A stretch of DNA of 64,000 bases, taken from the NCBI GenBank assembly GCA_032622095.1, contig CP136064.1, positions 249,643,827 to 249,707,826 of the forward strand. The letters are read 5' to 3'. Under the pieces are notes generated by a model. It had not been told where the DNA came from, did no database searches, and was given only the letters and a program-made list of their open reading frames with translations. Positions 39,948 to 64,000 of the stretch are shown one piece after another. Numbering within the stretch: the first letter of the stretch is position 1; each line of letters starts with the position of its first letter. The translations under genes were made by a program, and so were the position numbers. This stretch comes from Siphonodentalium dalli. Lineage: Eukaryota > Mollusca > Scaphopoda > Gadilida > Siphonodentaliidae.

Positions 39948-40248
39948 TTATTAATTAGATATTATATTTTTTTCCAGAATAGCATGTTATCGAACTAGGC
40001 TAATATCGCCCTTAAACCGAGTAATATCGATTTGCGACATCTCCAATCCAAGTAATGTGGATTTACGACATGCCGAAAATCTAAACTTCGCTGCTATAAA
40101 ATAACGATCTAATTAATAAATAGGATATTACTCGGTTGGTTTGCTATGATTGGACTCATATCAGCTTTCGACCGTCGGTTACCTCAGGCTGATATCGGGC
40201 CTAATATCAAACAATCGAAGTAATGTCCTCTAAGTAATATCCTCTTAA

Positions 40249-40738
40249 AGGCACGGTTGGACTTGGTTGTCGAAAATATTCATATTTGTTCCCAACACCG
40301 TAAACAGACAAACATTAAAACGCATACAGTTTCGTTCAGATATACCATGACCATCGCGTAAACAGCATGCTATCATAAAGACTTACTATATTTTACATAA
40401 GCAAGAGCCTGTGTTACAGAAGACAGCACAGTGTCACTGGCTAATCACACACAAATTATATAAACGCTCTTTATTCGTTCCATATCAGGAATTCAGCAAC
40501 AAAGAACGCTCTTTATGTTTACCATCATAATATAAACAAACACCAGAAAAGTTACTTTTTATGCTTGTGTTTACATACCAATGGTCAAACAAATGACAAT
40601 AACATACTGTTTATGCGATATTTATTATTTGTATACGGACAAAGTCTGTCTACATTTTGATGTTCTTTCTGTTTGTGGCGGTTTTTGATGGGTGGAAATA
40701 TTTTCACAGGATACCCACCGCCAAGGCCAACCGTACCT
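40249..40738. mobile_element. TTAA element family F1, copy 6 (inverted)
   Basis: TTAA at 40245-40248 and 40739-40742; ends AGGCACGGTTGGACTT and AAGGCCAACCGTACCT. Confidence 0.9.
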
Positions 40739-40854
40739 TTAACTAAGAAATATTTCACCTGCACTGTTTTTTTTAATGTTATAAACTTCTCTGTCAGAAC
40801 ATCAATAAGTTCCCAGGTTATAAACTGGTTGAGTATGATCTCTAGGGGCGTTAA

Positions 40855-43099: not shown

Positions 43100-43299
43100 T
43101 AGATTTTGAATTTATCTGGTGTCAAGTCGGACTGGGGATCTTTAACATTATGAGTCGCTTTAAACCAGGTAACTGAACGATGTCGTTCTTGTCGATCATT
43201 TGATCAAGATAGGTTTAGGAATATATAGGTTATTAGGCCAGATCACTGAGGTGCAAGGGGAATTATGCAAAAACATGTATTTGGTATGATTCTGATTCT

Positions 43300-43420
43300 A
43301 GGGGGAGGGTGCAAATGGAATTATGCAAAAAACATGTATTTGGTCTGATTCTGATTCAAGGGGGGGGGGGTGCAGTTGGAATTTCCCAAGGTGGACACCC
43401 CCCCCCCCGAACAGAGAGAC
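43300..43420. repeat. Duplicated GGAATTATGCAAAAA block with poly-G and poly-C tracts
   Basis: GGAATTATGCAAAAACATGT and the following TTTGGTMTGATTCTGATTC occur twice about 58 bp apart (near 43259 and 43317), followed by a G12 run and a C10 run. Confidence 0.7.
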
Positions 43421-43691
43421 CCTCCCCCACTCGGCGCTCTGCACCTCGGCAACTGTCTTTGGCAGATGGGCCGGTATTATATTCATTTCCCGGGCCGGTG
43501 TTTTGGCCCAGTCCGCCTCTGTGTTTGGGAAGTTCCCAGGTTCACAAAAATGTAATTTTGTTACCCAAGTCCACTGAAACTGGTATTTTCATACCCAGGT
43601 TTGGCGCATGTGTATATTCGATTCGAGATTATATAGATTCGACTGCATGGTCCTACATAACGTTCAGGCTTTGTATATACTCCGAAAAATA

Positions 43692-43825
43692 AATGGCCAA
43701 AGCCACAGCATTTCACCAGCCGTTTCCAATATTTCTCACATAAGTCAGATAAACGCTCTTTATCTTTACCATATCAGGAACACGTCAACAAAGAGGGCTC
43801 TTTATTGTTCCGTGATGAAGATTTT
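43692..43825. mobile_element. Internal fragment of a TTAA element (F2-like)
   Basis: AAAGCCACAGC, CAGCCGTTTCCAATATTTCT, AAACGCTCTTTAT, CCATATCAGGAA and GCTCTTTATTGTTCC match the interior of F2 in order, without termini. Confidence 0.65.
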
Positions 43826-43964
43826 GTACAGTCGATTACCTGAATAAGTCTTTGATGGGCTGTATGTGCATGACATTATGAATTCCAACATATCCTCGGA
43901 CAAAAATAGGTTCATAATCGACATACATTGTATAGTATTCACATACTTTAGTTCATATTGGATA

Positions 43965-44640
43965 ATTATACCCCCGCAACGAAGTTATGGGGGGGGGGGG
44001 TATACTGGAATCAGCTCGACCGTCCGTCCGTCCGTGGACACAAATTTGTCCGGAGTTTTTCTCAGTCATTTTTTGATCAATTTCCGTGAAAATTGGCACA
44101 GACATCAACCACTATGGGAATCTGTGCACCTGCGATTATGCGGTCTGTCGGACTTTTTTTTGGTAGAGTTATCCCCTTTTTCGACTTAGAAATTTTTCGC
44201 AACATGTATAATTTTGTCCGATCTTTTATTCCTACATTTTTAGGTCAATTTTTTTAAAACTTGGCATAGACATTTAGTACCAAGGGAACCTGTGATTATG
44301 ACGTCTGTCCGACATTTTTTGGTGGAGTTATCCCCTTTTTTTACTTAGAAATTCTTTTGCGACATGCATAATTTTGTCCGAGTTTTTATTCCTACATTTT
44401 TAGGTCAATATTTTTTAATCTTGGCACTGATATTTAGCACCATGGGAACCTGTGCACCTGCGATTATGATGTCTGTCCGACTTTTTTGTGTGGAGTTATT
44501 CCCCTTTTTCGACTTAGAACTTTTATTCCTACAGTTTTCGGTCAATATGTTTAAGATTAGGGTTGTGCACCTACAATGGGAACTGTTATTTTATTATTTA
44601 ACTAAATGTTTACTGACATGTGAAACATCTTAGTATTTTA
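43965..44640. repeat. Dispersed CCCCCGCAACGAAGT repeat with tandem 180-bp units
   Basis: The leader ACCCCCGCAACGAAGTTATG, poly-G, GTATACTGGAATCAG and CCGTCCGTCCGTCC is followed by three diverged units containing GAGTTATCCCCTTTTTCGAC, AATTTTGTCCGA, TTTTTAGGTCAAT and CTTGGCA. I know this leader as a common repeat in mollusc genomes. The units are related to the minisatellite at 4510. Confidence 0.7.
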
Positions 44641-44694
44641 AAAACACGGGGGTATCCTTAGTCCCATTGGGACAGTCACACCTCTATATAGTTT

Positions 44695-44860
44695 GATTCT
44701 GAAATAAGTCCATATATAGTGTACTTATATCCGTTATTCCATTTTATGGCGCGGGGCACAGTGAAAACATATTTTAAACACTCTTAGTTTCAGTTCATTA
44801 TCGACTCAAAACGAGGCGATTCTATGCCGATTATGAACCTAAAACAGATCATATTATATG
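44695..44860. repeat. Palindromic repeat family P, copy 6 (partial)
   Basis: CGTTATTCCATTTTATGGCG, CACAGTGAAAACATATTTTA and CGACTCAAAACGAGGCGATT match family P; the first hairpin arm is deleted. Confidence 0.6.
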
Positions 44861-44864
44861 TCCA

Positions 44865-45629
44865 TATAAACACCTCAAAAAAAGAAAGTCCCCCCTAATA
44901 TACTCGGTAATATTTTATGAGATATTGGATGGATTTTGACGAAACTTTACGCAAATGTGTAGTGGTATCTAATACACAACCTGTGTGAGACATCACCCTG
45001 TGAGTTATGGTATGGCCGACTGAGCATGAATTGAATGGAAGAGGGGTGCTTTTAAAAAGTTGACGTAGAGTTGACAGTCACTCCATTGTTCCATTGTTCA
45101 CACAAGTTGTTACTGGCTGCAAATGTGGTCTAAAAGTGACACTGAGTCCACGATAACATGCGTGTCATCTTCGGGACAGAATGTTTCTGGTTAATGCCCA
45201 GGCCATTCAGTCTAACCACATTCCTTTGGAATGACCCCTTGAAGTTTTATGCTGCGAGCAACACAGAGTTATTGAAATCAGTCTTCTTGAAGCCATTTTC
45301 AGTAAACCATGTTTCCCACCATGTTGGCCATTGATGTACCAACAGATAAGGATGTCCAAAGCATGTGCGAGAAGTGGGGACCAAGGCAGAGCTGAATGTC
45401 TGTGATCACTCTGCCTGTGTTTTTGCAACTTTTGAAAAGTGCCCCTCTTCCATTCAGTGTGTGCTCACTCAGCCATATATATCTCACCCCACAGCACAGT
45501 AAATAGCACACTTGATGTCTGTGGTACCACAAATCATTTGAGGAATGTTTCATAAAAATCCATCCAATATCTCATAAAATATTACCGAATATATTAGGGG
45601 GGACTTTCTTTTTTTTGGAGGTATTTATA
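44865..45629. mobile_element. Tc1/mariner-like non-autonomous element with 200-bp inverted ends
   Basis: The ends read TATAAACACCTCAAAAAAAG and the complement of TATAAATACCTCCAAAAAAA, then GAAAGTCCCCCCTAATATA and GATATTGGATGGATTTT on both sides. The arms stay alignable to about 45065 and from about 45423 (GAATGGAAGAGGGGTGCTTTT). The A-run followed by AGTCCCCC is a mariner-type end, and TA targets are present but ambiguous in an AT-rich context. The interior has no transposase. Inserted in unit 1; unit 3 lacks it at the matching place (about 61395). Confidence 0.65.
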
Positions 45630-45872
45630 TATATGTTATAGTCATATGCACAGAGTTTATGATCTGAAAAGATTTTCCGAAAGAAATTGTCACCTCGAAT
45701 GAAAACAAGAGTGCCTTATTCATGCCGGCTGTATATATATAAACAAAAGAGCGATTACTTTTGCCGATAGCGTAAAAATAAAATGTGATTGGCTTATTGC
45801 CTTTTAAAAAGAAATTTGATGGAGTTAACTCTTTCTATACTAACAACTCATTTGATGGATAGTTATCCCTTA

Positions 45873-46283
45873 GTACGTTCATACACTGGCAAGATTGCAC
45901 GGTATGGTGTGCAGGCATTTTGTCGTAGAAAACGATATGGTGCCATAATATGAACGGAAACAAGCATATAAAGCGCATCTGTGCCACAGCCAACTATATG
46001 CGAAGTAAAATCTCTGTAGTTCCACTAGTAACGATGCTACCGGAATTTGCCTGTAAATATCATGCAATTATCTCGCAAGAATAAATCCTTCAGGTGTTTG
46101 AAGGCAAATTCCAATAGCACTGTTACAAGTGGAACTAGATAAATGTTAGTTCTCATGTCTTTCGTTTTGGTAAAGATGCATGTTATTTGCACGATTCCGT
46201 TCATATTCTGGCACCATGTGGTTTTCTATGACGAAATGGCCACAAAACATACCGTGCAAACTTGCCAGCGTATGAACGCACCC
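45873..46283. mobile_element. PIF/Harbinger-like palindromic element, copy 2 (411 bp)
   Basis: TTA duplicated at 45870-45872 and 46284-46286. The ends are GTACGTTCATACACTGGCAA and TTGCCAGCGTATGAACGCAC. Unit 2 of the nanos array keeps the uninterrupted site (TATCCCTTAGGAAATG near 52885-52900), so this element arrived after that duplication. Confidence 0.8.
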
Positions 46284-46891
46284 TTAGGAAATGTTAATAT
46301 ATAATAACTTACATATAATAACTTATTATTTGAACATTTCTCTCCAATAAATAGCACTCTGTCTGCACTTTTATAATCTTTCGTCTGATTATTTTTCCGA
46401 TCACCCCTCCAAATAAATAACAGACCGTTCCAATGTATAATTTTATTACTGAATGGGAGAATCCATTCAGCATAGAAAGGGTTACTAAATGCTTATCAGT
46501 TATTCGACTGTTCCGACATTGTGTATATGTGTATAATGTACATATCTATCAGCCTACTCTTACGCAGGAATACTACAAAATCGAAAAACAAAATTGAAAT
46601 CGGCGAGGGTGTGGCTTTTAAGCCATTCTTCTCAATGCATATATAATTATGTGTCAAGGAAGATGCATATGAGTACTAAAAACGTAAGATGGTATAATGA
46701 GAATAAAATAATTTATTGAAATCATTTTTGACAAGTTATTTCACTGCATAAACAATTGGGAAACATTACAAATAGTTTTTATACATTAAACATATTAACG
46801 CGAATGTTATTCGTGCCAGTGCAATGAACATGGAAATGCACGTTTTCTGCCACAATTTACGTAACACTGTAAATATCACAAGAATGCTTAA

Positions 46892-47176
46892 AGGTGGATT
46901 GTACACTAAATCCGGACATTTATAGGACCATCTCCTTTTATACTTAACATAATATATGCAACAAATGCATGAATTTGAGCCATGGATTAGTGCAAAATAC
47001 ACTCATATGCTCTATGAACGACGCAAAGAACATGGTAATTATAATGAAAATTAATTTATGACTCGTTTTATTTTGCACTAATCCATGGCTCAAATTCATT
47101 CATTTGTTGCATATATCCTGTTGAATATAAAAGGAGATGGTCCCATAAATCGACGGGTTTAGTGTACAGTACCCCT
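46892..47176. mobile_element. TTAA element family F6, palindromic copy in unit 1
   Basis: TTAA at 46888-46891 and 47177-47180. Arms of about 115 bp (AGGTGGATTGTACACTAAAT, GGACCATCTCCTTTTATA, TTTGAGCCATGGATTAGTGC) make nearly the whole 285 bp a foldback. It lies about 100 bp beyond the nanos 1 stop codon, so it may be part of the 3' UTR. The same insertion is found after nanos 2 and 3. Confidence 0.85.
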
Positions 47177-47281
47177 TTAAATCACAAGACTTCTTAAATA
47201 AACATTCTAGAGTTCTAGTATTGTCCATCACAGTTTACCTCCAACAACTACCTCTATCTTGTGTTGTCCGTCAAAGAAATT

Positions 47282-47929
47282 CTATCTCCATCCAGGAAGC
47301 TTTTTGTTCATTGGGCAGTATTTTATCGTGTGTGCTTCGTCACCGAATTTTCCGCAAATTGGACACGTATAGCGCCTTAAGACTGGACACGTGACACGTC
47401 CATCACAGTCTTTGAGAATATGGCTGAGGAAAACTGACTCATTTTCGCCGTTGTTCCGACAGAAAACACATAACGCTCGTCTTTTGATTTTGTTCCGCCT
47501 CAGGATATAGTTCGCAAGTTCAGCGTTAGACTTGCAGACATCCGAGGTTTCTTGATGTTCAGGTCTCAGCGAGCGTCCTCGTGACTGGTATGAATCGACA
47601 TCGTCGAAGTTGGTCTCAGTTCCGTTTACCTTGAATTCGTCGAAGGCATCGTATCGTATCATGTCTAAATAGTCCCAAGCTGCGAGCTCTACACGAATGG
47701 CTACATAATCAGACTCATCCTCTTCCCATCGTGTTGCGTTGAGATAATCCAAATATGACGGAGTGGTGTAATCATAGAACTCATCACCAGGAACATAGGA
47801 ACCGAATGGTGACAATAATGTCAGCATGTCCTGCGCCGTCCACTCTTCTTGTGGGAATTGATCCTCGATTCTTTCGTCTTCGAGTGAGAAACAACCATAA
47901 ATAGTGTTCATTTCTTGCAAGGAGCCCAT
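47282..47929 (-). CDS. nanos: Nanos-like RNA-binding protein, copy 1 (C-terminally truncated)
   Basis: A single uninterrupted frame of 215 residues from MGSLQEMN. The N-terminal two thirds are acidic and low in known domains. Residues 154-205 form the nanos (CCHC)2 zinc finger with exact spacing: C154, C157, H170, C181, then C189, C192, H200, C205, including [32 protein letters not shown] and AHTIKYCP. Nanos proteins act with Pumilio and the CCR4-NOT deadenylase to silence mRNAs in germ cells and progenitors. Residues 84-90 (AWDYLDM) resemble a NOT1-interacting motif, which is inference. Codon 216 is TAG where copies 2 and 3 have CAG. The frame stays open for 17 more matching codons beyond it, so one base change removes the last 18 residues and leaves the finger whole. 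Start context GTCATGG. An intronless structure is usual for animal nanos. Confidence 0.93.
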
Positions 47930-48567
47930 GACTGAAATTTACGGTCGAACCACGTACACTTACTATTATAAGTTAACAGGTATATGTTGTTCAGATTTCG
48001 TGTTGTGACCAATGCTTCCGTGTGCCCAGTTATAAAGAAGATGGAGATTATGGGTGTTGTTGCAGTGATCAGTACAGGCTGCTAATCGGATGTACCGATC
48101 ACAGATACCGAACTGCGGACTAAACAAACTTAACAGTTAATTAAATGGGCAGGTGTGGTGGAAAACACGACCTACCCGTGTGGGAGTTAATCCATCCCTT
48201 GGTTTATTAATAATTACCATCATCTCTCATTATGATTGCTTAAGGCAAACGGGCGTTGGGTATTATCCATCAAAGATCCGTATACCTCTTTACAGAAGGC
48301 AATACGACATCGACAGAAGGCAATACGAGGACACCATGCAGGTGTTTGTGAAAAGATATAGATATGTACAGATTTGGTGCGACAAATATACATTACGTAT
48401 GTATAACGCGTTTTGTGGGGAAAAAACATGTCGGATTTTTAAATGACTCTAAATGGAACTTTGTAACCCATTTATTTTACAAGGATAGTGAAGACATTTT
48501 CATTCTTCTATAGCTCTAGTAAGAAAATGTCACTTTGTGACAAACAAAAAAGATGTCGGATTTTTAA

Positions 48568-48988
48568 AGGTACTCAATCCGATCAGACCCTCATAAATTA
48601 CTATCTCTTTGGCTTCGGGGGTAAAAAATATTTGATTCGAGTCGAGGAACCTACCCATCAACGCTCAGAGTGATCATATATAATTTTTTGAAGTTTTGTT
48701 ATTTCTATTGTTTGTGGCACAGAAACACGCCGTCAAAAGGATGGTTTCGGTCAAAATTGCGTTATTATAACCACTTGATTTTAGAGTTATCCATCTTCGT
48801 CCGTTTGAATAAGTGTTTGTGCATGGGGAAATTATTAGTACACATCTCGAGAAATAACAAACTTCAAAAATCAATATGTGATCACTCTGAGCTTTGACGG
48901 GTGGGTTCCTCGACTCGAATCAAATATTATTTACCCCTGAAGCCAAAGAAATAGTAATTTGGAGGGTGCTTAACCGGATTGAGTACCT
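48568..48988. mobile_element. TTAA element family F5, copy in unit 1
   Basis: TTAA at 48564-48567 and 48989-48992; ends AGGTACTCAATCCGATCAGA and CCGGATTGAGTACCT. It lies upstream of nanos 1. The matching insertion upstream of nanos 2 shows that it predates the duplication. Confidence 0.88.
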
Positions 48989-48992
48989 TTAA

Positions 48993-49534
48993 GCGAATTC
49001 CAAATACGACGCATTTGTAACCGGGTTACTGGAGTTAACACGCGAGAAAACTTTGAGAAAACGTTCGTAAACATAGTAACCGGTTACAAATGCGTCGTAT
49101 CTTTTTTCTGTACAAAAATCTGCTATATATGAACAGATATGGGCGAAAAAATATACATAGACGTGCCGAGAATACCAAATTTTCACAAACATTCCGAGCG
49201 CATGTAAATATGATTTCAGTTTGAATTTTTCTTTTTAGCAGGTATTATTTGTAGAATATCATACAAAATCTGGTGTACATATATTTGTTTGGTATTTTAC
49301 TATATTGATACCAGCACATGTGGAAAAAAGTTCTTGTGAACATTTTAACTTTACTTATGCCCCACACAAGAAGCTTACATAACAATTATAATTCATTAAA
49401 TATGGTATATATCTTCTCAGAAAGTTTTGTATAAATTCCGGGGTATACAATAATAATACTATGAATTGAGGACATCTTTCCGGTTTCTATCAATTATAAA
49501 AAAAATTATTTATAATTTCTTATCATATCCACAG
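48993..49534. other. Unit spacer with ACGACGCATTTGTAACCGG inverted repeat
   Basis: ATACGACGCATTTGTAACCG (about 49005) and its complement (about 49079) form a hairpin. The same hairpin is at 56221-56330 in unit 2. Otherwise non-coding. Confidence 0.6.
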
Positions 49535-50554
49535 GACAGTTTTAGAGGCGATGTTTGAGAGCAGAAATTCGCCCGAAAACTTTGTATCGTACAAAGAAGG
49601 AGAACTCTATCTTATTAGAACCCTCAATCTCTGTAAATTATTTCAGCCGCTCGTGGACATTCTGTACTTCCTTTTATCACACGATCCAGCGATTTAATGT
49701 GAAAGGAATGGGAATTGTTTGCCCAACATATGATCTGTTACAAAATTATTTGCCTTATGTTAGAAATTGGCTGGGATACCCTAGACAGCAGACGATATAC
49801 TCATGATACTAAACGACTGTTGGTTCTACATAACATCGTAAACAAGAAAGCTGCAAATTATCTGGTCTCTCTGCTACAACCCGTTTTGCCGATATAACTG
49901 ATTATGACCTCAGAAATGCAAATGATTTTACCCCTCTCCGCCGCGACACTAAACGAAAGGACTCATCTGTTTCCCCAAATGTCTCGCAGAATGGAATGCT
50001 CTAGAACCCTATTGCAGAAACTCTCGTCCAGAGGATTTTAAAAAACAGCTAAAGTTCGCAAATCCTAAACTGAAACCACCGAAATATTTCTCATTTGGAA
50101 AACGGCATTCTAATGTTATACAATGTCATCTCCGGTGTCGATGCAGTGACTTGCGGGATCACAAAGTGGTTAACCATTTGATAGACTCTAAAGTTCTAAA
50201 CTGTGTAGTTGTGGTCTCGGCGATGAGACTGTTGACCACTATTTCTTTGAATTCACGCTATATATATATGCTAGAGAAAGACTTATAGGCTATACAATAG
50301 TGATGTGAAAACCATATCAGTCAAGACACTTTTGTTCGGCAACCCATATATAAGTGATGATATGAATACTATAATCTTTAATTACGTGCATCGGTTCATT
50401 AAAGAAACAAAACGTTTCGATCTCGACGTCTGAGATGTGTAGAGCTGACATAAGAACGCAAAAGCGAATTAACCATAATTGTTGATATTTCGCCCTTGAT
50501 GTTAAATATTTATCGAACCCAGTAAAGCTGTCGACACCATGTAATACCCATAGC

Positions 50555-50626
<72 letters not shown>

Positions 50627-50955
50627 TCTCTCTCTCTATCTCTTTCTCTCTCTCTCTCCATCCTTCCTACCGTTTGCTTAATTTCAGTATCTCTATCGCG
50701 TTTTGTTGTATCACTCTTCCTTCTCTCATACATAACATGTGAAACAATCCATCAATTCTACTGTTAGTTGTCATTACTTGTACATAGCTATATTGTTATA
50801 ACATATTTCCTTGCTCTTGTGAGCGTTTAATTTGTAAATATTCAGTGTTTTGACAATGGGGAGAGGATGTTACTGTAAGTGAAGCACTTGTCATCCCATC
50901 GCTTTTGCCTGTTTGTATTTTAATACTATGCATTGAGCAAATAAAATACGTTTAA
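49535..50955 (+). pseudogene. LINE-A remnant in unit 1 (RT C-terminus and 3' UTR)
   Basis: Broken frames encode the post-RT region of a non-LTR element: LNLCKLFQPLVDILYFLLS, then LEIGWDTLDSRRYTHDTKRL, then KKAANYLVSLLQPVLP, and finally the Cys/His tail CRCSDLRDHKVVNHLIDS. A (TC)n tract and a 3' UTR ending in GAGCAAATAAAATACG (about 50935-50950) follow. No RT palm. Several stops and frameshifts. Confidence 0.7.
50558..50660. repeat. (TC)n microsatellite in unit 1
   Basis: About 100 bp of nearly pure TC dinucleotides. The Arg/Glu-repeat frame on the - strand is an artefact. Confidence 0.95.
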
Positions 50956-50979
50956 ACAAAATCGGCATCAGGGAGTAAT

Positions 50980-52250
50980 GGTTTCAAAATCGAATTCCTG
51001 TTGGAGCCGAGTCTCAGCTGCATGGTGTGCCCAAGGGATCCATACTCGGCCCTCTTCTTTTTTATCTACATTTATGATATTGTACACAATGCTACGTGCA
51101 TATTATAAGGCTTTTTGCCGATGATACCTCTTTATTTCTATACATTGAAGACCCAGCAATTGCAACAACAACGATATTAGTCTGATTTTCGAATGGTCTC
51201 AAAAATGGATAGTGAAATTTAATCTCATGAAAACAGAATAACTTCTAGTATCATGGAAAAATAACCTATTCGTAACCTAACCTAACAACCCTCCCCTTCA
51301 GATGTCGGGCAAGGATATTGTAGATGTCGAAAAAAGATGGCATCACTGATATTGAAAATTGAGCCGCAAATCGAATGTATATACTGAGAAAGTATATATT
51401 CATACTGGACAGGAGAACCATTGAGCGTATATAATTGTCATATATCCTTCCATTGTTGTAATATGCCTCCTCGATATGGGGTATAATTGCTCAGTTGAAG
51501 ATTCAACCTTTCTGGAAGATAATCAATACGAGGCTGCTAGATTAGTCACGGGAGAAACTAGAAGCTGCAGAAAAGAATCTCTATTACGAGAAACCGGTTG
51601 GGACACACTATCTAACAGGAGAGAAAACTCTAAACTTGAGCAATTTTTAATATGAATAAGAGAACCCCGCCCCTTACTTATATACTTTCGTTCCTATTGA
51701 ATCTGGAAGTTTATCCAATTATAATTTCAGACAGAAATGTCTCGGGACTCGCAGAGTTTACGCGACAAGATACGAAAATTCATTTATGCCAGCTATATAT
51801 ACCGCCAAATCATCGAACAACCTCTCACCAGAGGCGAAAGAATGTGAATCAGTCTCTGACTTTAAGAATTTTCTTTTAACCGATCGTGTTATCATACCGT
51901 CATATTATCATATAGCGTACCGAAGACCAAGTCAAATCTATCCATTGTCGTCTGCGAACGAACTGCAGTAAATTGAAATATGACCTGTTGTGCAATCATT
52001 TGAATAACAGTTCATTTTGCGACTGGATAATTATAAATGGTCGAGCACTTCTTACTCCACTGTCCAATATTCGAGCGTGAAAGGGTCCATCCATTGTTTA
52101 GCTAATCTATAACTGCGAACTGGGATGTCAAAATATTACTGTATGGGTCAATAGATATATCTTATACCAAAAATGCCGACATATTCATCGCCGTACAAAA
52201 GTTCATGGACGACACCAATCGATAAAACTGACAACGAGTCAACGATATTC
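50980..52250 (+). pseudogene. LINE-B remnant in unit 1 (RT palm fragment to C-terminus)
   Basis: Frames broken by indels encode HGVPKGSILGPLLF, then FIYIYDIVHN, then RLFADDTSLFLY (the catalytic FADD box of reverse transcriptase), then AARLVTGETRSCRKESLLRE and TGWDTLSNRRENSKL. This order is the RT palm and thumb of a CR1/jockey-like LINE. A segment present in unit 2 (VETHNHLGLTFNRDG, near 59256-59300) is deleted here. Non-functional. Confidence 0.75.
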
Positions 52251-52430
52251 ATGACTGATTATTCTTTCGCATCTTATTGTGTTTATAACTATTTCTAAAT
52301 ACGATTCTCACAAACATTTACCACACCAGGAATGCACTCCAGATTTGGAAATGGTTTATTACGTCATATTGGGAATGCCGCGTAGTTGTAGAAATGAAAT
52401 ATATTGGATACTTCTAGAGACGTACATCCG

Positions 52431-52813
52431 TTGTATTATCAACTTATCCGTGTAATAAATTGAGGACATGTTGTTTTTATTGAGTTGGCGAACGCGTTTT
52501 GTCATCAAGATTGAAGTAAAAATCAGTATTATTTTCAATGCAGGGGGAATAACTCTATATATTAAAGATAGAGTTCCCCCCCCCTTGCATTAAAAAGTTT
52601 GAATTATGTTGCACTCTGGGTGCCAGAGGGGAGAAATCATTCTAGAATTTCAGCAGTTATGTATTTCTCTGTGGGCATCTTCTGAGACACAAATGTTTCA
52701 AATAGTGATGAATTATAGTATTTTAATCATATTTTATTGTATAGATCGTTATTAAAACCGTATATCAAGTCACTATAAAAAAATAATCGGCGACTCGAAA
52801 ATTAAGTGGGCCT
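52431..52813. mobile_element. TTAA element family F4, left-truncated
   Basis: Matches 36862-37268 from TTGTATTATCAACTTATCCG to AAGTGGGCCT with TTAA at 52814-52817. It contains the GGGGGAATAACTCTAT hairpin. It starts abruptly at the edge of the LINE-B segment, where unit 2 has different sequence, so it may mark a duplication breakpoint. Confidence 0.75.
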
Positions 52814-53599
52814 TTAAAATAGCGACCATTGCTATACTTTTTCCAATATCGTAACATTAAAATGTGGTCGGCCGAAAGCTTTTATCCCTTAGGAAATGTT
52901 CAGACAATATGTTTTAGATATAACAACTTATTATCTGAACATTTCCCTCAAATGAATAGCACTCTTTCTGCACTTTTGTTATCTTTCGTCCGATTATTTT
53001 CACCGAACACCCCTCCAAATGAATAATAGACCGTTCCAATGTATACTTTTATAACTGAATGGGATAATCCATTCAGTATAGAATGGGTTACTAAATGTTT
53101 ATCAGTTACGGGGCTATTCAGAGTATGTGCAGCATGGATATGAGTTGATCTTATACCGGTTGGAGATATTACCCATGCATTATACTTCATCTATAACACA
53201 CATATATATGTGTGTTATATTAATACGGACTATATGCATGCAGTGTGACTCCGACACGCTTAGCAACGTTGACGTATTTATAATGTTGTATGTTTATAAT
53301 AGAACAAATTCCTGTGGTTAAATGTTGGCATATGACACAAATGTATCTTCTAACGTACTGTCTTCCCAGTCGATATAATAGAATTTGATACGCGAACTAT
53401 ATATATATTCTTTCTTCGACTCGAATTTAAAACCGTATTGCGCACTAACTGCTATTCCAGGTTCACTAACATGTATTTATGCCGAACGGCAATTTATGTA
53501 AACAACATGCGAAAACGCAGAGTTTCACTCAGAAAACAACCTCAAAATGGTGCCCCAAAAAATTCATAAATAAATATGGTCGGTATAAGATAAATACAA

Positions 53600-53740
53600 C
53601 AATAGCATAGTGTGTTGAGTTGGACGTTATCTCAGCTCGTTGAAAGTGGAATATTTCGCTCGGCAGAACCTCGCGATGTATTCCATTTTCAACTCATTGA
53701 GATATCGTCCATCTCAAAACACACTATATATGCTATTATC
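53600..53740. repeat. Hairpin repeat in unit 2
   Basis: GGACGTTATCTCAGCTCGTTG with GTGGAATATTTCGCTCGGCA pairs imperfectly with CGATGTATTCCATTTTCAAC and GAGATATCGTCCATCTC. The same hairpin is at 62207-62350 in unit 3 and is missing in unit 1. Confidence 0.75.
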
Positions 53741-54087
53741 GTATGTATATCTATCATCCTACTCTTACACAGGAATACAACAAAATCGAAAATTCTTTTT
53801 TAAATCGACGAGGGTATGGCTTTAAGCCATTCTTCTCAATTAATATAATTATTTTTCAAGGAAGACATGAGTACTAAAAACTTAAGATGCTGTAGAGAAA
53901 ATAAAATAATTTATTTAAATAATTTTGACAAGTTATTTCACTGCATAAACAATTGGGAAACATTACAAATAGTTTTTATACATTAAACATATTAACGCGA
54001 ATTTTATTCATATCAATGTAATGAACATGTAGATGCACGTTTTCTGCCACAATGTTTCGTAACATGTTAAATCACAAGAATGCTTAA

Positions 54088-54385
54088 AGGACTGTCCACT
54101 AAATCCGACCATTTATGAGACCATCTCCTTTTATACTCAACGGAATATATGCAACATATATGCAATTCTGGCAATTTGAGCCATGGATATATACACTCGT
54201 TTGCTCTATGAATGATGAATGATGACTCCTGTCATACATTAATTTTCATTATAATCACCATTTGATTGTATTGAGTGTATTTTGCACTAATCCATGGCTC
54301 AAATTCATTCATTTGTTGCATATATTCTGTTGAGTATAATAGCAGATGGTCCCATAAATGGCAGGATTTAGTGTATAGTACCTCT
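54088..54385. mobile_element. TTAA element family F6, palindromic copy in unit 2
   Basis: TTAA at 54084-54087; the right site has decayed to TTGA. Orthologous to 46892-47176, just past the nanos 2 stop. Confidence 0.8.
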
Positions 54386-54416
54386 TTGATTACTTATAGA
54401 GTTCCAGTATTGTCCA

Positions 54417-55118
54417 TCACAGTTTACCTCCAACAGCTACCTGTATCTCGTGTTGTCCGTCAAAGAAATTCTGTCTCCAACCAGGAATCTTTTTGTTCAT
54501 TGGGCAGTATTTTATCGTGTGTGCATCGTCGCCGAATTTGCCGCAAATTGGGCACGTGTAGCGCCTTAATACTGGACACGTGACACGTCCATCACAGTCT
54601 TTGAGAATATGGCTGTGGAAAACTGACTCATTTTCGCCGTTGTTCCGACAGAAAACACACAACGCTCGTCTTTGTGTTTTGTTCCGCTTCAGGAAATAGT
54701 TCGCAAGTTCAGTGTTCGACTCACAGACATCCGATGTTTCTTGATGTTCAGGTCTCAGCGATCGTCCTCGTGATTGGTATGAATCCACGTCGTCGAAGTT
54801 GGTCTCAATTCCGTTGATCTTGAATTCGTCGAAGGCATCGTATCGTATCATATCTAAATAGTCCCAAGCTGTGAGCTCTACTCGAATGGCTACATAATCA
54901 GACTCATCTTCTTCCCATCTTGTTGCGTTGAGATAATCCAAATATGACGGAGCGGTGTAATCATAGAACTCATCACCAGGAACATAGGAACCGAATGGTG
55001 ACAATAATGTCAGCATGTCCTGCGCCGTCCACTCTTCTTGTGGGAATTGATCCTCGATTCTTTCGTCTTCGAGTGAGACACAACAATAAATAGTGTTGAT
55101 TTCTTGCAAGGAGCCCAT
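54417..55118 (-). CDS. nanos: Nanos-like RNA-binding protein, copy 2 (full length)
   Basis: This 233-residue intronless frame has the same layout as copy 1 and the complete C-terminal tail (ending VAVGGKL). The (CCHC)2 finger has C154, C157, H170, C181, C189, C192, H200 and C205, with all ligands present. Differences from copies 1 and 3 include I7, C12-V14 (YCCVSL against YGCFSL) and KINGIE against KVNGTE. They are scattered and conservative in the finger (GDDAH against GDEAH), which suggests constraint on the finger after duplication. F6 lies just downstream and F5 about 660 bp upstream, as in unit 1. Expected role: germline mRNA repression with Pumilio. Which copy is expressed cannot be read from sequence. 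Confidence 0.94.
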
Positions 55119-55780
55119 GACTGAAATTTACGGTCGAACCACGTACAATTACTATTATAAGTTAACAGGTATATGTTGTTCAGATTCGTGTTGTGACCAA
55201 TGCTTCCGTGTGCCCAGTTATAAAGAAGATGGAGATTATGGATGTTGTTGCAGTGATCAGTACAGCCTGCTAATCGGATGTACCGATCACAGATACCGAA
55301 CTGCGGACTGAATAAACTTAACAGTTAATTCAATGGGCAGGTGTGGTGGAAAAAACGACCTACCCATGTGGGAGTTAATCCAACCCTTTGTTTATTAATA
55401 ATTACCATCATCTCTCATTATGATTGCTTAAGGCAAACGGGCGCTGGGGATTATCCATCAAAGAGTCTTTTTGGTGATCCGTATACCTCTTTACAGAAGG
55501 CAAACGACATCGACAGAAAGCAATACGAGGACACCATGCAGGTGTTTGTGAAAAGATATAGATATGTCCAGATTTGGTGCGACAAATATCCATTACGTAT
55601 GTGTAACGCATTTTGTGACCAAAAGAAAACATGTCGGATTTTAAACGACTCTAAATGGAACTTTGTAACCCATTTATTTTACAAGTATAGTGAAAACATT
55701 TTCATTCTTCTATATTTCGAGTTATTCTCAAGTAAGAAAATGTCACTTTGTGACAAACAAAAAAGATGTCGGATTTTTAA

Positions 55781-56196
55781 AGGTACTCAATCCGATCAGA
55801 CCCTCATAAATTCCTATCTCTTTGGCTTCGTGGGTAAAACATATTTGAGTCGAGTCGAGGAACCTACCCATTAACGCTCAGAGTGATCAGATAAAAACAA
55901 TTTAAGTTTTGTTTTTTCTATTGTTTGTGGCCCAGAAACACGCCGTCAAAATGATGGTCTCGGTCAAAATTGCGTTATTATTACCACTTGATTTTACAGT
56001 TATTCATATTCGTCCATTTGAATAAGTGTTTCTGGGGCAATTATTAGTACATATCTCAAGAAATAACAAACTTCAAAAATCAATATCTGACCACTCTGAT
56101 ATTTGAAGGGTGGGTTCCTCGACTCGAATCAAATATTTTTTACCCCTGAAGCCAAAGAAATAGTAATTTAGGGGTGCTTAATCGGATTGAATACCT
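55781..56196. mobile_element. TTAA element family F5, copy in unit 2
   Basis: TTAA at 55777-55780 and 56197-56200; ends AGGTACTCAATCCGATCAGA and TCGGATTGAATACCT. Orthologous to 48568-48988. Confidence 0.88.
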
Positions 56197-56819
56197 TTAA
56201 ACGAATTCCAAATATAAGAAATACGACGCATTTGTAACCGGGTTACTGGAGTTAACACGCGAGCAAACTTTGAGAAAACGTTCGTAAACATAGTAACCAT
56301 AGTAACCGGTTACAAATGCGTCGTATCTTTTTTCTATACAAAAATCTGCTATATATGAACAGATATGGTCGGGGAAAAAAATAAACAGGATTTATTTTTG
56401 ATAATACAACACGGTGTATACATATAAAATATACATAGACGTGCCGAGAATACAAAATTTTCACAAACATTCCGAGCGCATGTAAATATGATTTCAGTTT
56501 GAATTTTTACTTTTTAGCAGGTATTATTTGTAGCTATCATACAAAATGCCACTATCTGGTGTACATATATTTGTTTGGTATTTTACTATATTGATAACAG
56601 CACTGGTGGGAAAAAGTTCTTGTTAACATTTTAACCATTCTTGTGCCCCACACAAGAATTTAAGCTTATACATAACAATTATAATTCATTAAATATTGTA
56701 TATCTCTTCCCAGAAAGTTTTGTATAAATTCCGGGGTATACAATAATAATACTATGAATTGAGGACATCTTTCCGGTTTCTATCAATTATAAAAATTATA
56801 ATTTCTTATCACATCCACA

Positions 56820-57546
56820 GGACAGTTTTAGAGGCGATGTTTGAGAACAGAAATTCGCGCGAAAACTTTGTATCGTACAAAGAAGGAGAACTCTATCTTA
56901 TTAGAACCCTCAATCTCTGTCAATTATTTCAGCCGCTCGTGGACATTCTGTACTTCCTTTTATCACCCGATCCAGCGATTTATGGTGAAAGGAATGGGAA
57001 TTGTTTGCCCAACATATGATCTGCTACAAAATTATTTGCCTTATGTTAGAAATTGGCTGGGATACCCTAGACAGCAGACGATATATTAAACGACTATCGG
57101 TTCTACATACCATCGTAAACAAGAAAGCTGCAAATTATATGGTCTCTCTGCTACAACCCGTTTTGCCGATACAACTGATTATGACCTCAGAAATGCAACT
57201 GATTTTACCCCTCTCCGCCGCGACACTAAACGAATGGACTCTTTTTTCCCAAATGTTTCGCAGAATGGAATGCTTTAGAACCCTATTGCATAAACTCTCG
57301 TCTAGAGGATTTAAAAAAAAAGATAAAGTTCGCAAATCCTAAACTGAAACCACCGAAATATTTCTCATTTGGAAAGCGGCGTTCTAATGTTATACAATGT
57401 CAGCCCCGGTGTCGATGCAGTGACTTGCGGGAACACAAAGTAGTTAACCATTTGATAGACTCTAAACTGTGTAGTTGTGGTCTCGGCGATGAGACTGTTG
57501 ACCACTATTTCTTTGAATGCACGCTATATGCTAGAGAAAAACTTAT
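56820..57546 (+). pseudogene. LINE-A remnant in unit 2, part before the hAT insertion
   Basis: Orthologous to 49535-50310. The same post-RT blocks are present, and the tail is better kept than in unit 1: CRCSDLREHKVVNHLIDS, CSCGLGDETVDHYFFEC and TLYAREKLIGY, the CxCG-x-ET-x-DHYFFxC zinc-like end of LINE ORF2 proteins. Stops and shifts remain. It is cut by the hAT element at the next base. Confidence 0.72.
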
Positions 57547-57554
57547 AGGCTATG

Positions 57555-58168
57555 CAGGGGTGACGCCAGTGGGGGAACGGGGGGGGGGGGCTACAGCCCC
57601 CTTGTCGGGGAGCTCTAGCCCCCTCGGCGGGGAGGACTTGTCGGGGATTTTATATAAGTAAGTCGGTTGTGTGTATAAGATGAAGTAATCATGTACAGAC
57701 TGTCAGTGTGGGAAAGTGTCAGAGAGAGAGAACATACAGCGGAATATATCCCACCCAAAATATTCATGGCACATGTTCCCATTAAATCCGGGGGTATTCC
57801 CCTGTATTGTTACACCATCAGCGTTTTAGTGGTAATGAAAATCTATTGAAACATGTGTGCTTTATCATTGAGTACCTACAGTATGGTCACATGTTATATA
57901 GCTATATCCCCGACAGTGAAACACCATGCTGGCACTTGCAACTAATGAAATTAGAAATTAGAACTGACACAGAAGACAAGTGGCCTCCCAAGAATATAGG
58001 AATTTGCACAACAATTCATGGGTTTTAATCTTCGAGTTATCTCATCTGCTAATTATGGCTGATGTATTGCTTGCACACACACTATGTGCGCTCATTTCAC
58101 ATACCAACAGGCAATATGGTGTAATGTAGTGTAGCCCCCCTGTCGGGGATTTTCTGGTGCCACCCCTG
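57555..58168. mobile_element. hAT-superfamily non-autonomous element (614 bp)
   Basis: An exact 8-bp target duplication AGGCTATG (57547-57554 and 58169-58176) and terminal inverted repeats CAGGGGTGACGCCAG / CAGGGGTGGCACCAG are the classic hAT signature. GC-rich subterminal CCCCCTTGTCGGGG blocks occur near both ends. No transposase. Unit 1 keeps the empty site (ATAGGCTATACAATAGTG near 50284-50302), so insertion followed the unit 1/2 duplication. Confidence 0.92.
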
Positions 58169-58875
<707 letters not shown>

Positions 58876-58889
58876 CAAAATTATTTGGA

Positions 58890-60200
58890 CAATCGGCATC
58901 AGCGAGTAATCGTTTCAAACTCGAATTTCTGTTGGAGCCGAGTCTCAGCTGCATGGTGTGAGCAAGGGATCCATACTCGGCCCTCTTCTTTGTTTTTATC
59001 TGCATTGATGATATTGTACACAATGTTACGTGCATTATAAGGCTTTTTGCCGATGATACCTCTTTATTTCTATACATTCAAGACCCAACAATTTCAACAA
59101 CAACGATATTAATCTGATTTTCGAATGGTCTCAAAAATGAATAGTGAAATTTAATCTCATGAAAACAGAATAACTTCTAGTATCATGGAAAAATAACCTA
59201 ATCGTAACCTATCATAACAAACCTCCCCTTCAGATGTCGGGAAAGGATATTGTAGATGTCGAAACTCACAACCATTTAGGTCTTACTTTTAACAGGGACG
59301 GTACGTGGAAAGAACACATCATGATATTGAAAATCGAGCCGCAAATCGAATGTATATACTGAGAAAGTATAAATTCGTACTGGACAGGAGAACCATTGCG
59401 CGTATATAATTGTCATATATCCTTCCTGTGTTGTAATATGCCTCCTCGATATGGGGTATAATTTCAGTTGAAGATTCAACCTTTCTGGAAGATAATCAAT
59501 ACGAGGCTGCTAGATTAGTCACGGGAGAAACTAGAAGCTGCAGAAAAGAATCTCTATTACGAGAAACCGGTTGGGACACACTATCTAACAGGAGAGAAAA
59601 CACTAACCTTGAGCAATTTTTAAAATGAATAAGAGAACCACGCCCCTTACTTATATACTCTCGTTCCTATTGAATCTGGAAGTCTATCAAATTATAATTT
59701 CAGACAAAAATGCCTCGGAACTCGCCGAGTTTACGCGACAAGATACGAAAATTCATTTCTTCCAGCTTTATACCGTCAAATCATGGAACAACCTCTCACT
59801 AGAAGCGAAAGAATGTGAATCAGTCTCTGACTTTAAGAATTTTCTTTTAACCGATCGCATTATCATACCGTCATATTATTATACAGCGTACCGAAGACCA
59901 AGTCAAATCTACCCATTGTCGCCTGCGAACGAACTGCAGTAAATTGAAATATGACCTGTTTTGCAATCATTTGAATAACAGTTCATTTTGCGACTGTATA
60001 ATTAGAAACGGCCAAGAACTTCTTAATCCACTGTCCAATATTCGAGCGTGAAAGGGTCCATCCATTGTTTAGCTAATCTATAACTCCGAACTTGGAAGTC
60101 AAAATATTACTGTATGGGTCAATAGATATATCTTATACCAAAAATGCCGACATATTCATCGCCGTACAATATTTCATGGACGACACCAATCGATTTAACT
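58890..60200 (+). pseudogene. LINE-B remnant in unit 2
   Basis: Orthologous to 50980-52250, with RT palm motifs (GSILGPLLF; RLFADDTSLFLY), VETHNHLGLTFNRDG and TWKEH that unit 1 has lost, then the AARLVTGETR and TGWDTLSNRRE thumb region. Disrupted by stops and indels. Confidence 0.75.
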
Positions 60201-60202
60201 GA

Positions 60203-60812
60203 CATAATATGGTTATGAACTGTGAACTATCAGTCTTTAAAAAGCCGAAGAAAATTTTACAATATTTACGTCTCCGGACATCTCTTGTATAATCAGTTAC
60301 TGCATGCTTTGATGGGATTCCCTCCATTTGATTGGACAGTGGCGAAGCACGCGCGGGATTTCATTGGTTTATGGCATCATCATCATCATCATATTTATTG
60401 TCTAACATCTATATATAAGACATTCTAGACAAATTACAAATAATTATATACAAATAATATATATAGTTACGTGTGCATCATCACGCATAATATAACCATA
60501 ATACATTTAATTACAGGTCGACATTATATGTTATATACGGATACAAAGCCTACGCCCTACATTAGCTATAGTTATTTAATGCCGAATGAGTTGGTTGTGA
60601 ATGGGATGGATCCCCCGCATATGCATACACTGTTCTACATTTCTGAAAATAAAATAACATATCACTTCACAGATCAGAGGTAAATGACGTGTTGACAAGT
60701 TTCCCACGCATTGTCAAACTCAACTATTGTTCGAAAACTGAATACAAGCGATATATCCATAACTCATTTTACTCATCCAAATATAGAAGACATCATCTTC
60801 GAGTGTTTATCA
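60203..60812. other. 610-bp segment present in unit 2, absent in unit 1
   Basis: Unit 1 jumps from AATCGATAAAACTGAC to AACGAGTCAACGATATTC. In unit 2 about 610 bp lie between the same flanks. No transposon termini, so it is an indel of unknown direction. Contains a short (CAT)n run. Confidence 0.65.
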
Positions 60813-60999
60813 GTCAACGATATTCGTGATTGATTATTCTTTCGCATCGTATTGTATTTATAACTATCTCTAAATGCAACGATTCTCACAAACATTCACC
60901 ACACCAGGAATGCACTGCAGATTTGGAAATGTTTTATTACGTCATATTGGGAATGCCGCGTCGTTGTAGAAATGAGATATAATAGATACTTCTTGAGAT

Positions 61000-61489
61000 A
61001 TACATCCGTTAGGATTATCGTCGGCTTGTCAAGGAGACTGATGAATCATAAGCCTAAACCGTCGCCCAAAAGCGAAAACCTAAAATATTGTTAAAATGAG
61101 GATTTTGCATTGTCAGTACAAGGGAGATAATTCAACTTGTGATATGACAATTCGGTCAATACAGACATATATATATGCTCCGACCATTTCAGTATCTTGC
61201 AACCAAGCATTCGTGTTTTACTTATCAATGACCATGGGGCAACAGAAAGTTGGAGTAGAGTAACCCCTTAAAATTGTGAAAATGGTCAGAAATCTTGTAT
61301 TGCTACCTTAACATCGTGAGTCGCTTTAAACCAGGTTATTAAACGATGTCGTTCTTGTCGATTCTGTGATAAAGATAGGTTCATAGATATATGTTATACT
61401 CATATACGGAGTTTATGATATGAAAGAAAGAAAGAAATTATCCCCTCGAATGAAAAAAAGAGTCCCTTGTTACATTAAAAAAGCGACCT
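61000..61489. other. Junction region between units 2 and 3
   Basis: From about 61310 it matches the outer left flank of unit 1 (43145-43220 and then 45636-45720), with the 2.4-kb insertions of unit 1 absent. Non-coding. Confidence 0.65.
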
Positions 61490-62206
61490 TAGGAAATGTC
61501 GAGACAATATGTTTTAGCTTTAACAACTTATTATCTGAACATTTCCATCCAATGAATAGCACTCTTTCTGCACTTTTGTTATCTTTAGTCAGATTATTTT
61601 CCCCGAACACCCCTCCAAATGAATAATAGACCGTTCCAATGTATACTTTTATTACTGAATGAGATAATCCATTCAGTATAGAATGGGTTACTAAATGTTT
61701 ATCAGTTACGGGGCTGTTCGTAGTATGTGCAGAATGGATATGAGTTGATCTTATACCGGTTGGAGATATTGCCCATGCATTATACTTCATCTATAATACA
61801 CATATATATGTGTGTTATATTAATACCATGAACGGACTATATGCAGTGTGACCCCGACACGCTTAGCAACGTTGACGTATTTATAATGTTGTATGTTTAT
61901 AATAGAACAAATTCCTGTGGTTAAATGTTGGCATATGACACAAATGTATTTTTATATCGAACTGTCTTCCCAGTCGATATTATAGAAATTGATACGCGAA
62001 CTATATATATATTCTTTCTTCGACTCGAACTTAAAACCGTATTGCGTACTAACTGCTGTTCCAGGTTTACTAACACGTATTTATGCGCAACGGCAATTTG
62101 TGTAAACAACATGCGAAAACGCAGAGTTTCACTCAGAAAAAAACCCCTCAAAATGGTGCCCGAAAAATTCATAAATAAATATGGTCGGTACAAGATAAAT
62201 ACAATA

Positions 62207-62350
62207 ATAGCATAGTGTGTTTGAGTTGGACGTTATCTCAGCTCGTTGAAAGTGGAATATTTCGCTCGGCAGAACCTCGCGACGTATTCCATTTTCAACT
62301 CATTGAGATATCGTCCATCTCAAAACACACTATATATGCTATTATCGTAT
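62207..62350. repeat. Hairpin repeat in unit 3
   Basis: Orthologous to 53600-53740. Confidence 0.75.
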
Positions 62351-62670
62351 GTATATCTATCATCCTACTCTTACACAGGAATACAACAAAATCGAAAATT
62401 CTTTTACAAAATCGACGAGGGTGTGGCTTTAAGCCATTCTTCTCAATTAATATAATTATGTTTCAAGGAAGACATGAGTACTAAAAACTTAAGATGCTGT
62501 TGTGAAAATAAAATAATTTATTTAAATAATTTTGACAAGTTATTTCACTGCATAAACAATTGGGAAACATTACAAATAGTTTGTATACATTAACAATATT
62601 AACGTGAATGTTAAATGAACATGTAGATGCACGTTTTCGGCCACAATGTTTCGTAACATGTTAAATCACA

Positions 62671-62953
62671 AGGACTGTCCACTAAATCCGACCATTTATG
62701 AGACCATCTCCTTTTATACTCAACAGAATATATGCAACATATATGCAATTTGAGCCATGGATATATACACTCGTTTGCTCTATATATGAATGATGAATGA
62801 TGACTCCTGTCATAAATTCATTTCATTATAATTAACATTTTGATTGTATTGAGTGTATCTTGCACTAATCCATGGCTCAAATTCATTCATTTGTTGCATA
62901 TATTCTGTTGAATATATTCTGTTAAATGGCAGGATTTAGTGTACAGTAACCCT
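62671..62953. mobile_element. TTAA element family F6, palindromic copy in unit 3
   Basis: Orthologous to 54088-54385. The left TTAA and a few bases are deleted and the right site is TTAT. Confidence 0.75.
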
Positions 62954-62987
62954 TTATATTCGCATTCTAGAGTTCCAGTATTGTCCA

Positions 62988-63689
62988 TCACAATTTACCT
63001 CCAACAGCTACCTGTTTCTCGTGTTGTCCGTTGAAGAAATTCTGTCTCAAACAAGGAAGCTTTTTGTTCATTGGGCAGTATTTTATCGTGTGTGCTTCGT
63101 CACCGAATTTGCCGCAAATTGGACACGTATAGCGCCTTAATATTGGACACGTGACACGTCCATCACAGTCTTTGAGAATATGGCTGTGGAAAACTGACTC
63201 ATTTTCGCCGTTGTTCCGACAGAAAACACACAACGCACGCCTTTGGGTTTTGTTCCGCTTCAGGAAATAGTTCACAAGTTCGGCATTCGACTCACAGACA
63301 TCCGATGTTTCTTGTTGTCCAGGTCTCAGCGAGCGTCCTCGTGACTTGTATGAATCCACATCGTCGAAGTTGGTCTCAGTTCCGTTGACCTTGAATTCGT
63401 CGAAGGCATCGTATCGTATCATGTCTAAATAGTCCCAAGCTGTGAGCTCTACCCGAATGGATACATAATCAGTCTCATCTTCTTCCCATCTTGATGCGAT
63501 GAGATAATCCAAATATGACGGAGCGGTGTAATCATAGAACTCATCACCAGGAACATAGGAACCGAATGGTGACAATAATGTCAGCATGTCCTGCGCCGTC
63601 CATTCTTCTTGTGGGAATTGATCCTCGATTCTTTCGTCTTCGAGTGAAAAACAACCATAAATAGTGTTCATTTCTTGCAAGGAGCCCAT
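62988..63689 (-). CDS. nanos: Nanos-like RNA-binding protein, copy 3 (full length)
   Basis: A 233-residue intronless frame from MGSLQEMN. All eight zinc ligands of the nanos finger are kept at the same positions as in copies 1 and 2, with a complete tail ending VAVGGKL. The frame is open for 65 more codons upstream (to 63884) only in this copy. That extension has no counterpart upstream of the other two genes, which contain stops there, so the shared ATG at 63689 is chosen. Distinctive changes include [16 protein letters not shown] (residues 62-77) and [15 protein letters not shown]. The downstream F6 element and upstream flank match units 1 and 2. Confidence 0.93.
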
Positions 63690-64000
63690 GACTGAATTTA
63701 CGTTCGAACCACGTACAATTACAATTAAGTTAGTAGGTATATGTTGTTCAGATTCCGTGTTGTGACCAATGCTTCCATGTGCCCAGTTATAAAGAAGATG
63801 GAGATTATGGATGTTGTTGCAGTGATCATTACAGGTTGCTAATCGGATGTACCGATCACGGATACCGACCTGGGGACTAAACAAACAAAGCAGTTAATTC
63901 AATAGGCAGGTGTGGTGGCAATCACGACCCACCGATGTGGAGTTAATCCATCCATTTGTTTGGTAATAATTACCATCGTCTCTCATTAATATTGCAGAAC

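What the first reader, a model, noticed from the sequence alone, without database searches (positions are those of the whole stretch)
43100..64000. Tandem triplication of an intact nanos gene
Three diverged but intact nanos frames stand head to tail in about 17 kb, each with all eight zinc ligands in exact nanos spacing. Animals usually have one to three dispersed nanos genes; a local array of three would be unusual. The third unit is cut by the window, so more copies may follow. Divergence outside the finger with conservation inside it suggests that more than one copy is under selection.
Basis: partly seen in the sequence, partly recalled or inferred. Interest (0 to 1): 0.85.

Follow-up and report, generated by a model that had tools for sequence, protein, structure and literature searches.

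The report
Genome-wide explosion of nanos genes
The three nanos genes side by side in this window are real, and they are the edge of something larger: this animal's genome holds roughly 250 or more nanos-type genes, most in long tandem arrays, although the partner proteins checked look single-copy.

Summary
Three nanos ORFs stand head to tail on the minus strand at 47285-47929, 54420-55118 and 62991-63689, with identical zinc-ligand spacing. The duplicated blocks are 85-92% identical. Copy 1 stops 18 codons early, after the finger. Three more members lie 0.2-0.8 Mb away on the other strand. All 15 pairs of the six have dN/dS 0.19-0.39.

The window is the small end of a much larger expansion. 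In the 2.23-Gb, 9-contig genome I count at least 249 nanos-type places in eight subfamilies on six contigs. Two arrays dominate: 55 units of 2.5 kb, and at least 150 units of 3.0 kb over 546 kb. Not1, PUF and Piwi domains hit only one, one and four loci, against a general assembly artefact. Separated lineages show purifying selection (pN/pS mostly 0.2-0.4). Within the arrays it is not detectable. The CNOT1-binding motif is near-canonical in some subfamilies and degenerate in the window's. Expression, read depth, species and function are untested.

The parts
47285..47929 (-). nanos W1, 215 codons, stop TAG 18 codons early, finger complete
54420..55118 (-). nanos W2, 233 codons, intact
62991..63689 (-). 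nanos W3, 233 codons from the ATG homologous to W1 and W2, intact (frame open upstream to 63884)
46281..52440 (.). repeat unit 1 (holds W1); limits are the outermost matches to unit 2, with unmatched stretches inside
   Evidence: self-comparison
52886..61019 (.). repeat unit 2 (holds W2); limits are the outermost matches to units 1 and 3
   Evidence: self-comparison
61487..64000 (.). repeat unit 3 (holds W3), cut by the window end
   Evidence: the genome goes on in L027
46888..47180 (.). inverted repeat (112-nt arms) about 100 bp downstream of W1's stop; a related one (69-nt arms) at 54091-54379 after W2; matching arms after W3 (62674-62742, 62850-62916) are listed only against the other copies

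Best explanation
The three genes belong to one of at least eight nanos subfamilies that multiplied in this genome. SHOWN: at least 249 places; head-to-tail clusters and two arrays of 55 and at least 150 units; some clusters in opposite orientation; subfamily members on different chromosomes; mostly open frames; between-lineage purifying selection; a conserved upstream block in one subfamily. INFERRED: clusters and arrays grew by DNA-level duplication and unequal exchange, while gene-sized pieces of about 0.85-1.4 kb moved between chromosomes by a route not settled (DNA- or RNA-mediated). INFERRED too: the proteins still work as Nanos-type RNA-binding repressors, binding target mRNAs through the C2HC pair, probably with the one Pumilio-type protein found, and calling in CCR4-NOT through the N-terminal motif in subfamilies that keep it (K, A, F). 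Those with a degenerate motif (W, C, D, B, E) may act more weakly, by another route, or by competing. The arrays would give high germline or maternal dosage.
For: PF05741: 150 of 150 scored (of 349 candidates) over the cut-off, on six contigs. Window family of six. Array B at least 150 copies over C1:129.370-129.916 Mb, 7 of 150 with a stop in residues 1-128. Array A 55 units, 2 with a stop. pN/pS between lineages: W 0.32, D 0.27-0.40 in 20 of 21 pairs, E 0.33, A vs C1:97 0.23, K 0.29. About 190 bp upstream of the ATG are 76-81% identical (gaps aside) between D clades whose pS is about 0.5; alignment scores 105-112 against at most 28 in 20 shuffles each. Sampled copies with all eight ligands and no inner stop: W 6 of 6, D 7 of 7, E 3 of 3, K 4 of 4, F 1 of 1, B 35 of 38; A array 22 of 24 (L087 lacks the ligand pattern, one row has a 1-base deletion) and C array on C4 14 of 16 (L042 lost a ligand, L007 is frameshifted). 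Partners not amplified.
Against: No expression data. Within arrays selection is not detectable: B 37 copies, 16 synonymous vs 41 nonsynonymous or stop variants, ratio 0.74, p 0.19 (with the dropped divergent row L059, 26 vs 84, ratio 0.93, p 0.42); A 24 copies, 4 vs 9, p 0.27; C 14 copies, 6 vs 18, p 0.42, the two broken C copies L007 and L042 having been left out. Pairwise pN/pS is 1.10 in the C array and 2.7 in the C6 pair, on few changes. Many array units may therefore be dispensable. The upstream block of D is not shared by other subfamilies: 9 of 9 between-subfamily comparisons do not exceed shuffles. Array length depends on the assembly, and an N run borders array A (L009).
Confidence: 0.6

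Rival explanations
1. Macrosatellite: nanos was trapped in tandem repeats that grow by unequal exchange. The array frames look intact because units are young and homogenised, not because they are needed.
For: Within-array variant ratios are compatible with neutrality. B spacers are 97-100% identical in the 40 best places scored of 895 candidates.
Against: Dispersed and sister lineages of A, D, E, K and W, with pS from 0.03 to about 0.5, keep open frames and pN/pS near 0.3. That argues for the lineages, not for each array unit.
Confidence: 0.23
2. A mobile element or reverse transcription moves gene-sized nanos pieces between chromosomes.
For: Between chromosomes homology is short and ends abruptly: C4 vs C6 (L016, L026) from -486 to +326 at 91% identity. 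In D, L003, L004 and L024 begin to match at the same point, about 251-275 bp before the ATG, with unrelated sequence before it, and L003 vs L004 (91% identical) ends at the stop codon. All frames are intronless.
Against: No transposase, terminal repeats, target-site duplications or poly-A ends were searched for specifically; none is plain at the four pairs of ends printed. Open frames of 150 aa or more in the fetched loci were listed, not run against Pfam. Tandem units share long spacers, which needs DNA-level copying.
Confidence: 0.12
3. Assembly artefact or uncollapsed haplotypes.
For: Long near-identical arrays are hard to assemble; an N run borders array A.
Against: Window copies differ by 8-15% with indels and sit on one contig. 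Not1 hits one locus, PUF one (150 of 221 candidates scored), Piwi four. Subfamilies lie on six contigs.
Confidence: 0.06

Closest known systems
Nanos family (PF05741; PDB 3alr, 5kl1, 5kl8)
   Same: Same C2HC pair, 87-88 Pfam bits; 3 of 3 PDB hits of copy W1 at E <= 0.001 are Nanos
   Different: At least 249 places rather than a few paralogs (e.g. four nanos genes in a grouper, PMC5412271, title and abstract start in the listing); N-terminal motif degenerate in most copies
Human NANOS1-3 CNOT1-interacting motif (PMC4003280, passages read)
   Same: Of F1-W4-D6-Y7-L10, A (FSLFGDYLGL) and F (FQAMRDYFGL) keep four and K (YSPWDDYFGF) three, by eye
   Different: W ([10 protein letters not shown]), C and D keep only Y7; E keeps at most Y7; B has no recognisable motif
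Amplified germline gene arrays such as Stellate, or Drosophila sperm nuclear basic protein expansions (recalled, and the listing only)
   Same: Long tandem arrays of a reproductive gene with near-identical units
   Different: The amplified gene is a translational repressor of germ-cell fate; sex linkage and drive are untested here

Membership tests
Nanos | Two C2HC zinc fingers in nanos spacing | tested here: met
   8 ligands in all three copies; PF05741 over cut-off
Nanos | Nearest solved proteins are Nanos | tested here: met
   3 of 3 PDB hits are Nanos, E 2e-19 to 4e-19 (copy W1 only)
Nanos | N-terminal CNOT1-interacting motif (not required for membership: PMC4003280 says it was not detected in insect, flatworm, annelid or rotifer Nanos) | tested here: not met
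   Window copies keep 1 of 5 near-invariant residues, judged by eye on alignment A1
Nanos | Germline expression and function; Pumilio-dependent repression | not testable with these tools
   No RNA or protein data; one PUF locus was found
Amplified (ampliconic) germline array | Many near-identical tandem units with open frames | tested here: met
   Arrays A and B
Amplified (ampliconic) germline array | Sex linkage, germline expression or drive | not testable with these tools
   No sex, expression or cross data

The most novel reading that the evidence does not exclude
An intragenomic arms race run on nanos. Subfamilies that kept the RNA-binding finger but lost the CNOT1-binding motif (B with at least 150 copies, W, C, D) would be dominant-negative or selfish nanos that compete with the motif-bearing ones (K, A, F) for target mRNAs and for the single Pumilio-type and Not1 genes' products. 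Copy number on each side would escalate because it biases germ-cell fate or gamete transmission.
Probability: 0.13. Interest if true: 0.96.

Novelty: new variant of a known kind. Interest (0 to 1): 0.84.

Why it matters
Nanos is a conserved regulator of germ-cell fate and, as recalled, is kept in a few copies in the animals studied. An animal with some 250 nanos-type genes, while its Not1 and PUF genes look single, would be an unplanned experiment in germline dosage, paralogue division of labour and perhaps genetic conflict. It gives sharply testable predictions on expression, on motif-bearing versus motif-less copies and on copy-number variation between individuals. My searches of open papers for nanos duplication, paralogs, expansion, copies or tandem arrays (seen as listings) showed no comparable case; most subscription papers are outside that library.

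Tried and rejected
Rfam scan of 11 loci at gathering thresholds: no match. An AlphaFold2 model of W3 from 16 rows was poor (mean pLDDT 50, finger about 65-83) and was not used. Chiton origin: guessed from chromosome number (A. crinita has nine haploid chromosomes, PMC12005716 passages) and a recalled resemblance of the window's tropomyosin. The molluscan haemocyanin domain PF14830 was not found, but that search had no positive control and ignores introns, so the taxon stays open. Chaetoderma (17 chromosomes, PMC10810820 passages) does not fit. The DNA search with the B spacer scored only 40 of 895 candidates, all in array B, so it does not show whether the spacer occurs elsewhere. TATA-like words occur 42-120 bp upstream of the ATG in 16 of 22 genes scanned; no chance control was run, so this is only suggestive. 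Tree support between subfamilies is modest (SH-aLRT 82-90 at several inner joins) and long branches meet, so I rely on subfamily identity and not on the branching order. The odds of the mobile or RNA-mediated rival went from 0.07 to 0.12, of the macrosatellite rival from 0.25 to 0.23 and of the best explanation from 0.62 to 0.60.

Rows dropped before counts: L059 (divergent B copy, 77 mismatches) from the second B count, both counts given; L001 and L002 (same copies as in L016 and L017), L007 (frameshift) and L042 (ligand lost) from the C array; two of 18 C4 copies were not fetched.

Full report
OBSERVATION. The window has three minus-strand nanos ORFs, at 47285-47929, 54420-55118 and 62991-63689. 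Each matches PF05741 at 87-88 bits against a cut-off of 27, and the eight zinc ligands fall at identical residues. The nearest solved proteins are Nanos, 3 of 3 hits at E <= 0.001 (copy W1). Unit comparison gives long direct repeats at 85-92% identity, so this is a head-to-tail triplication. W1 has TAG in place of CAG and lacks the last 18 codons, not the finger.

FAMILY OF THE WINDOW. The own-genome search placed the window at C4:249643827-249707826 of a 2.227-Gb, 9-contig assembly. A W3 query found six close members (89-100% identity, itself included): the three here on the minus strand, and C4:249.902, 249.911 and 250.465 Mb on the plus strand. L027, which reaches 9.2 kb past the window, holds the start of W3 and no other intact finger. 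One of the far copies (L020) stops just after the last zinc ligand. Among the six, dN/dS over the ORF is 0.19-0.39 in 15 of 15 pairs. In the finger it is 0.05-0.25 in 14 of 15; the last pair has no synonymous change there. dS of 0.08-0.19 is close to the divergence of the whole repeat blocks, 8-15%.

GENOME SCALE. PF05741 gave 349 first-look candidates, of which the 150 scored all passed the cut-off. Putting the lists together: W 6; C 18 on C4:127.87-128.15 Mb (one matched only in part) and 2 on C6; D 7 on C4 and C3; E 4 on C5, three and one placed by location with a short frame; F 1 on C2; K 4 on C5; A 55 units at C1:103.256-103.395 Mb plus 2 at C1:97.11 Mb (of its 63 rows 56 are from the array, one unit being split in two, and 5 are fragments or the F gene); B at least 150 at C1:129.370-129.916 Mb (capped at 150 of 281 candidates). 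That is 249. Three further short finger matches (C4:124.834, C2:141.673, C2:141.687) are not counted. At a spacing near 3.0 kb the 546 kb of B would hold about 180 units (inference). Stops: 7 of 150 B copies within residues 1-128 and 2 of 55 A units.

SAMPLED COPIES. All eight ligands and no inner stop: W 6 of 6, D 7 of 7, E 3 of 3, K 4 of 4, F 1 of 1, and B 35 of 38 (failing: L059, L062, L064). In array A 22 of 24: L087 lacks the ligand pattern and one row has a 1-base deletion; in array C 14 of the 16 fetched of 18: L042 has lost a ligand and L007 is frameshifted. So most, not all, copies are intact.

CONTROLS. Not1 (PF04054): 4 exon matches, one locus. PUF (PF00806): 6 matches, one locus, 150 of 221 candidates scored. 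Piwi (PF02171): 16 matches, four loci. The assembly is thus not generally multiplied, and the two protein partners looked at are not amplified with nanos.

SELECTION. Between separated lineages pN/pS is 0.32 (W, 15 pairs), 0.29 (D, 21 pairs; 20 of them 0.27-0.40, one young pair 0.09), 0.33 (E, 3 pairs), 0.23 (array A vs C1:97), 0.29 (K, 6 pairs) and 0.35 (C with C6, 120 pairs). Within arrays it is not distinguishable from neutrality: B 37 copies ratio 0.74, p 0.19, or 0.93, p 0.42, with the odd copy L059; A 24 copies ratio 0.58, p 0.27; C 14 copies ratio 0.83, p 0.42. Pairwise figures are 0.20 for A, 0.63 for B (13 copies), 1.10 for C, and 2.7 for the C6 pair on few changes. So the lineages have been constrained, while individual array units may be dispensable. 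In subfamily D about 190 bp upstream of the ATG are 76-81% identical between clades with pS about 0.5, far above shuffled controls, as expected for a kept promoter or leader; no upstream block is shared between subfamilies, 0 of 9 comparisons.

HOW IT SPREAD. Tandem units share long spacers, so clusters and arrays grew at DNA level; plus- and minus-strand clusters of W point to inversion. Between chromosomes less is shared. C4 and C6 copies match from -486 to +326 at 91% identity and then stop. In D, three lineages (L003, L004, L024) begin to match at the same point, 251-275 bp before the ATG, and L003 and L004, 91% identical, stop matching at the stop codon. This looks like movement of gene-sized pieces, DNA- or RNA-mediated; the route is open. 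Of open frames of 150 aa or more in three array samples (L010, L013, L015), none recurs with the unit besides nanos; one lies in an insert of a single A unit. Rfam finds nothing in 11 loci.

HOW IT MAY WORK. The eight ligands are invariant in a 16-row alignment over eight subfamilies. The CNOT1-interacting motif described in PMC4003280 (passages read: F1, W4, D6, Y7, L10) keeps four of five residues in A and F and three in K; only Y7 is left in W, C and D; E keeps at most Y7, and in B no motif is recognisable (by eye). All but K share a middle motif of the type [DE]F..NG.....D, whose role is unknown. I infer that the proteins bind RNA as Nanos does, that some still call in CCR4-NOT, and that the window's group may use another contact or compete. 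None of this is tested.

LIMITS. No reads, RNA, sex or species data; the taxon is not identified. The literature statement covers, seen as listings only.

Noticed in passing
31335-32315 (+): A single open frame holding a full-length tropomyosin (285 residues searched from 31458, PDB tropomyosins at E about 1e-61); intronless here, so perhaps a retrocopy.
   Followed up: partly
42-1006 and 1025-1989: A 965-bp direct repeat, 99% identical, each copy with a 152-aa frame that looks like the end of a reverse-transcriptase-type element by eye.
   Followed up: no
2621-3122, 9278-10283, 13419-13921, 27917-28427, 40243-40748: A roughly 500-bp interspersed repeat in both orientations, 72-98% identical, also in L021 and L027.
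   Followed up: no
46888-47180, 54091-54379; arms at 62674-62742 and 62850-62916: An inverted repeat lies just downstream of the nanos stops of W1 and W2, with matching arms after W3; either a MITE-like insertion older than the triplication or a 3' UTR hairpin.
   Followed up: no
G000:C1:97.110-97.120 Mb: Two intact A-type nanos genes alternate with three N-terminal fragments at a period near 4.65 kb, as in a decaying small array.
   Followed up: no
L024:398-1540 (-): An open frame of 381 aa that looks like a membrane receptor by eye next to the D-type nanos on C3.
   Followed up: no
alignment A1, all rows but the two of K: A conserved middle motif, [DE]F..NG.....D, upstream of the finger with no known role.
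   Followed up: no
upstream ends of L003, L004 and L024 copies: Three D-type nanos lineages on two chromosomes begin to match at the same point 251-275 bp before the ATG, a possible transcript start or element end.
   Followed up: partly
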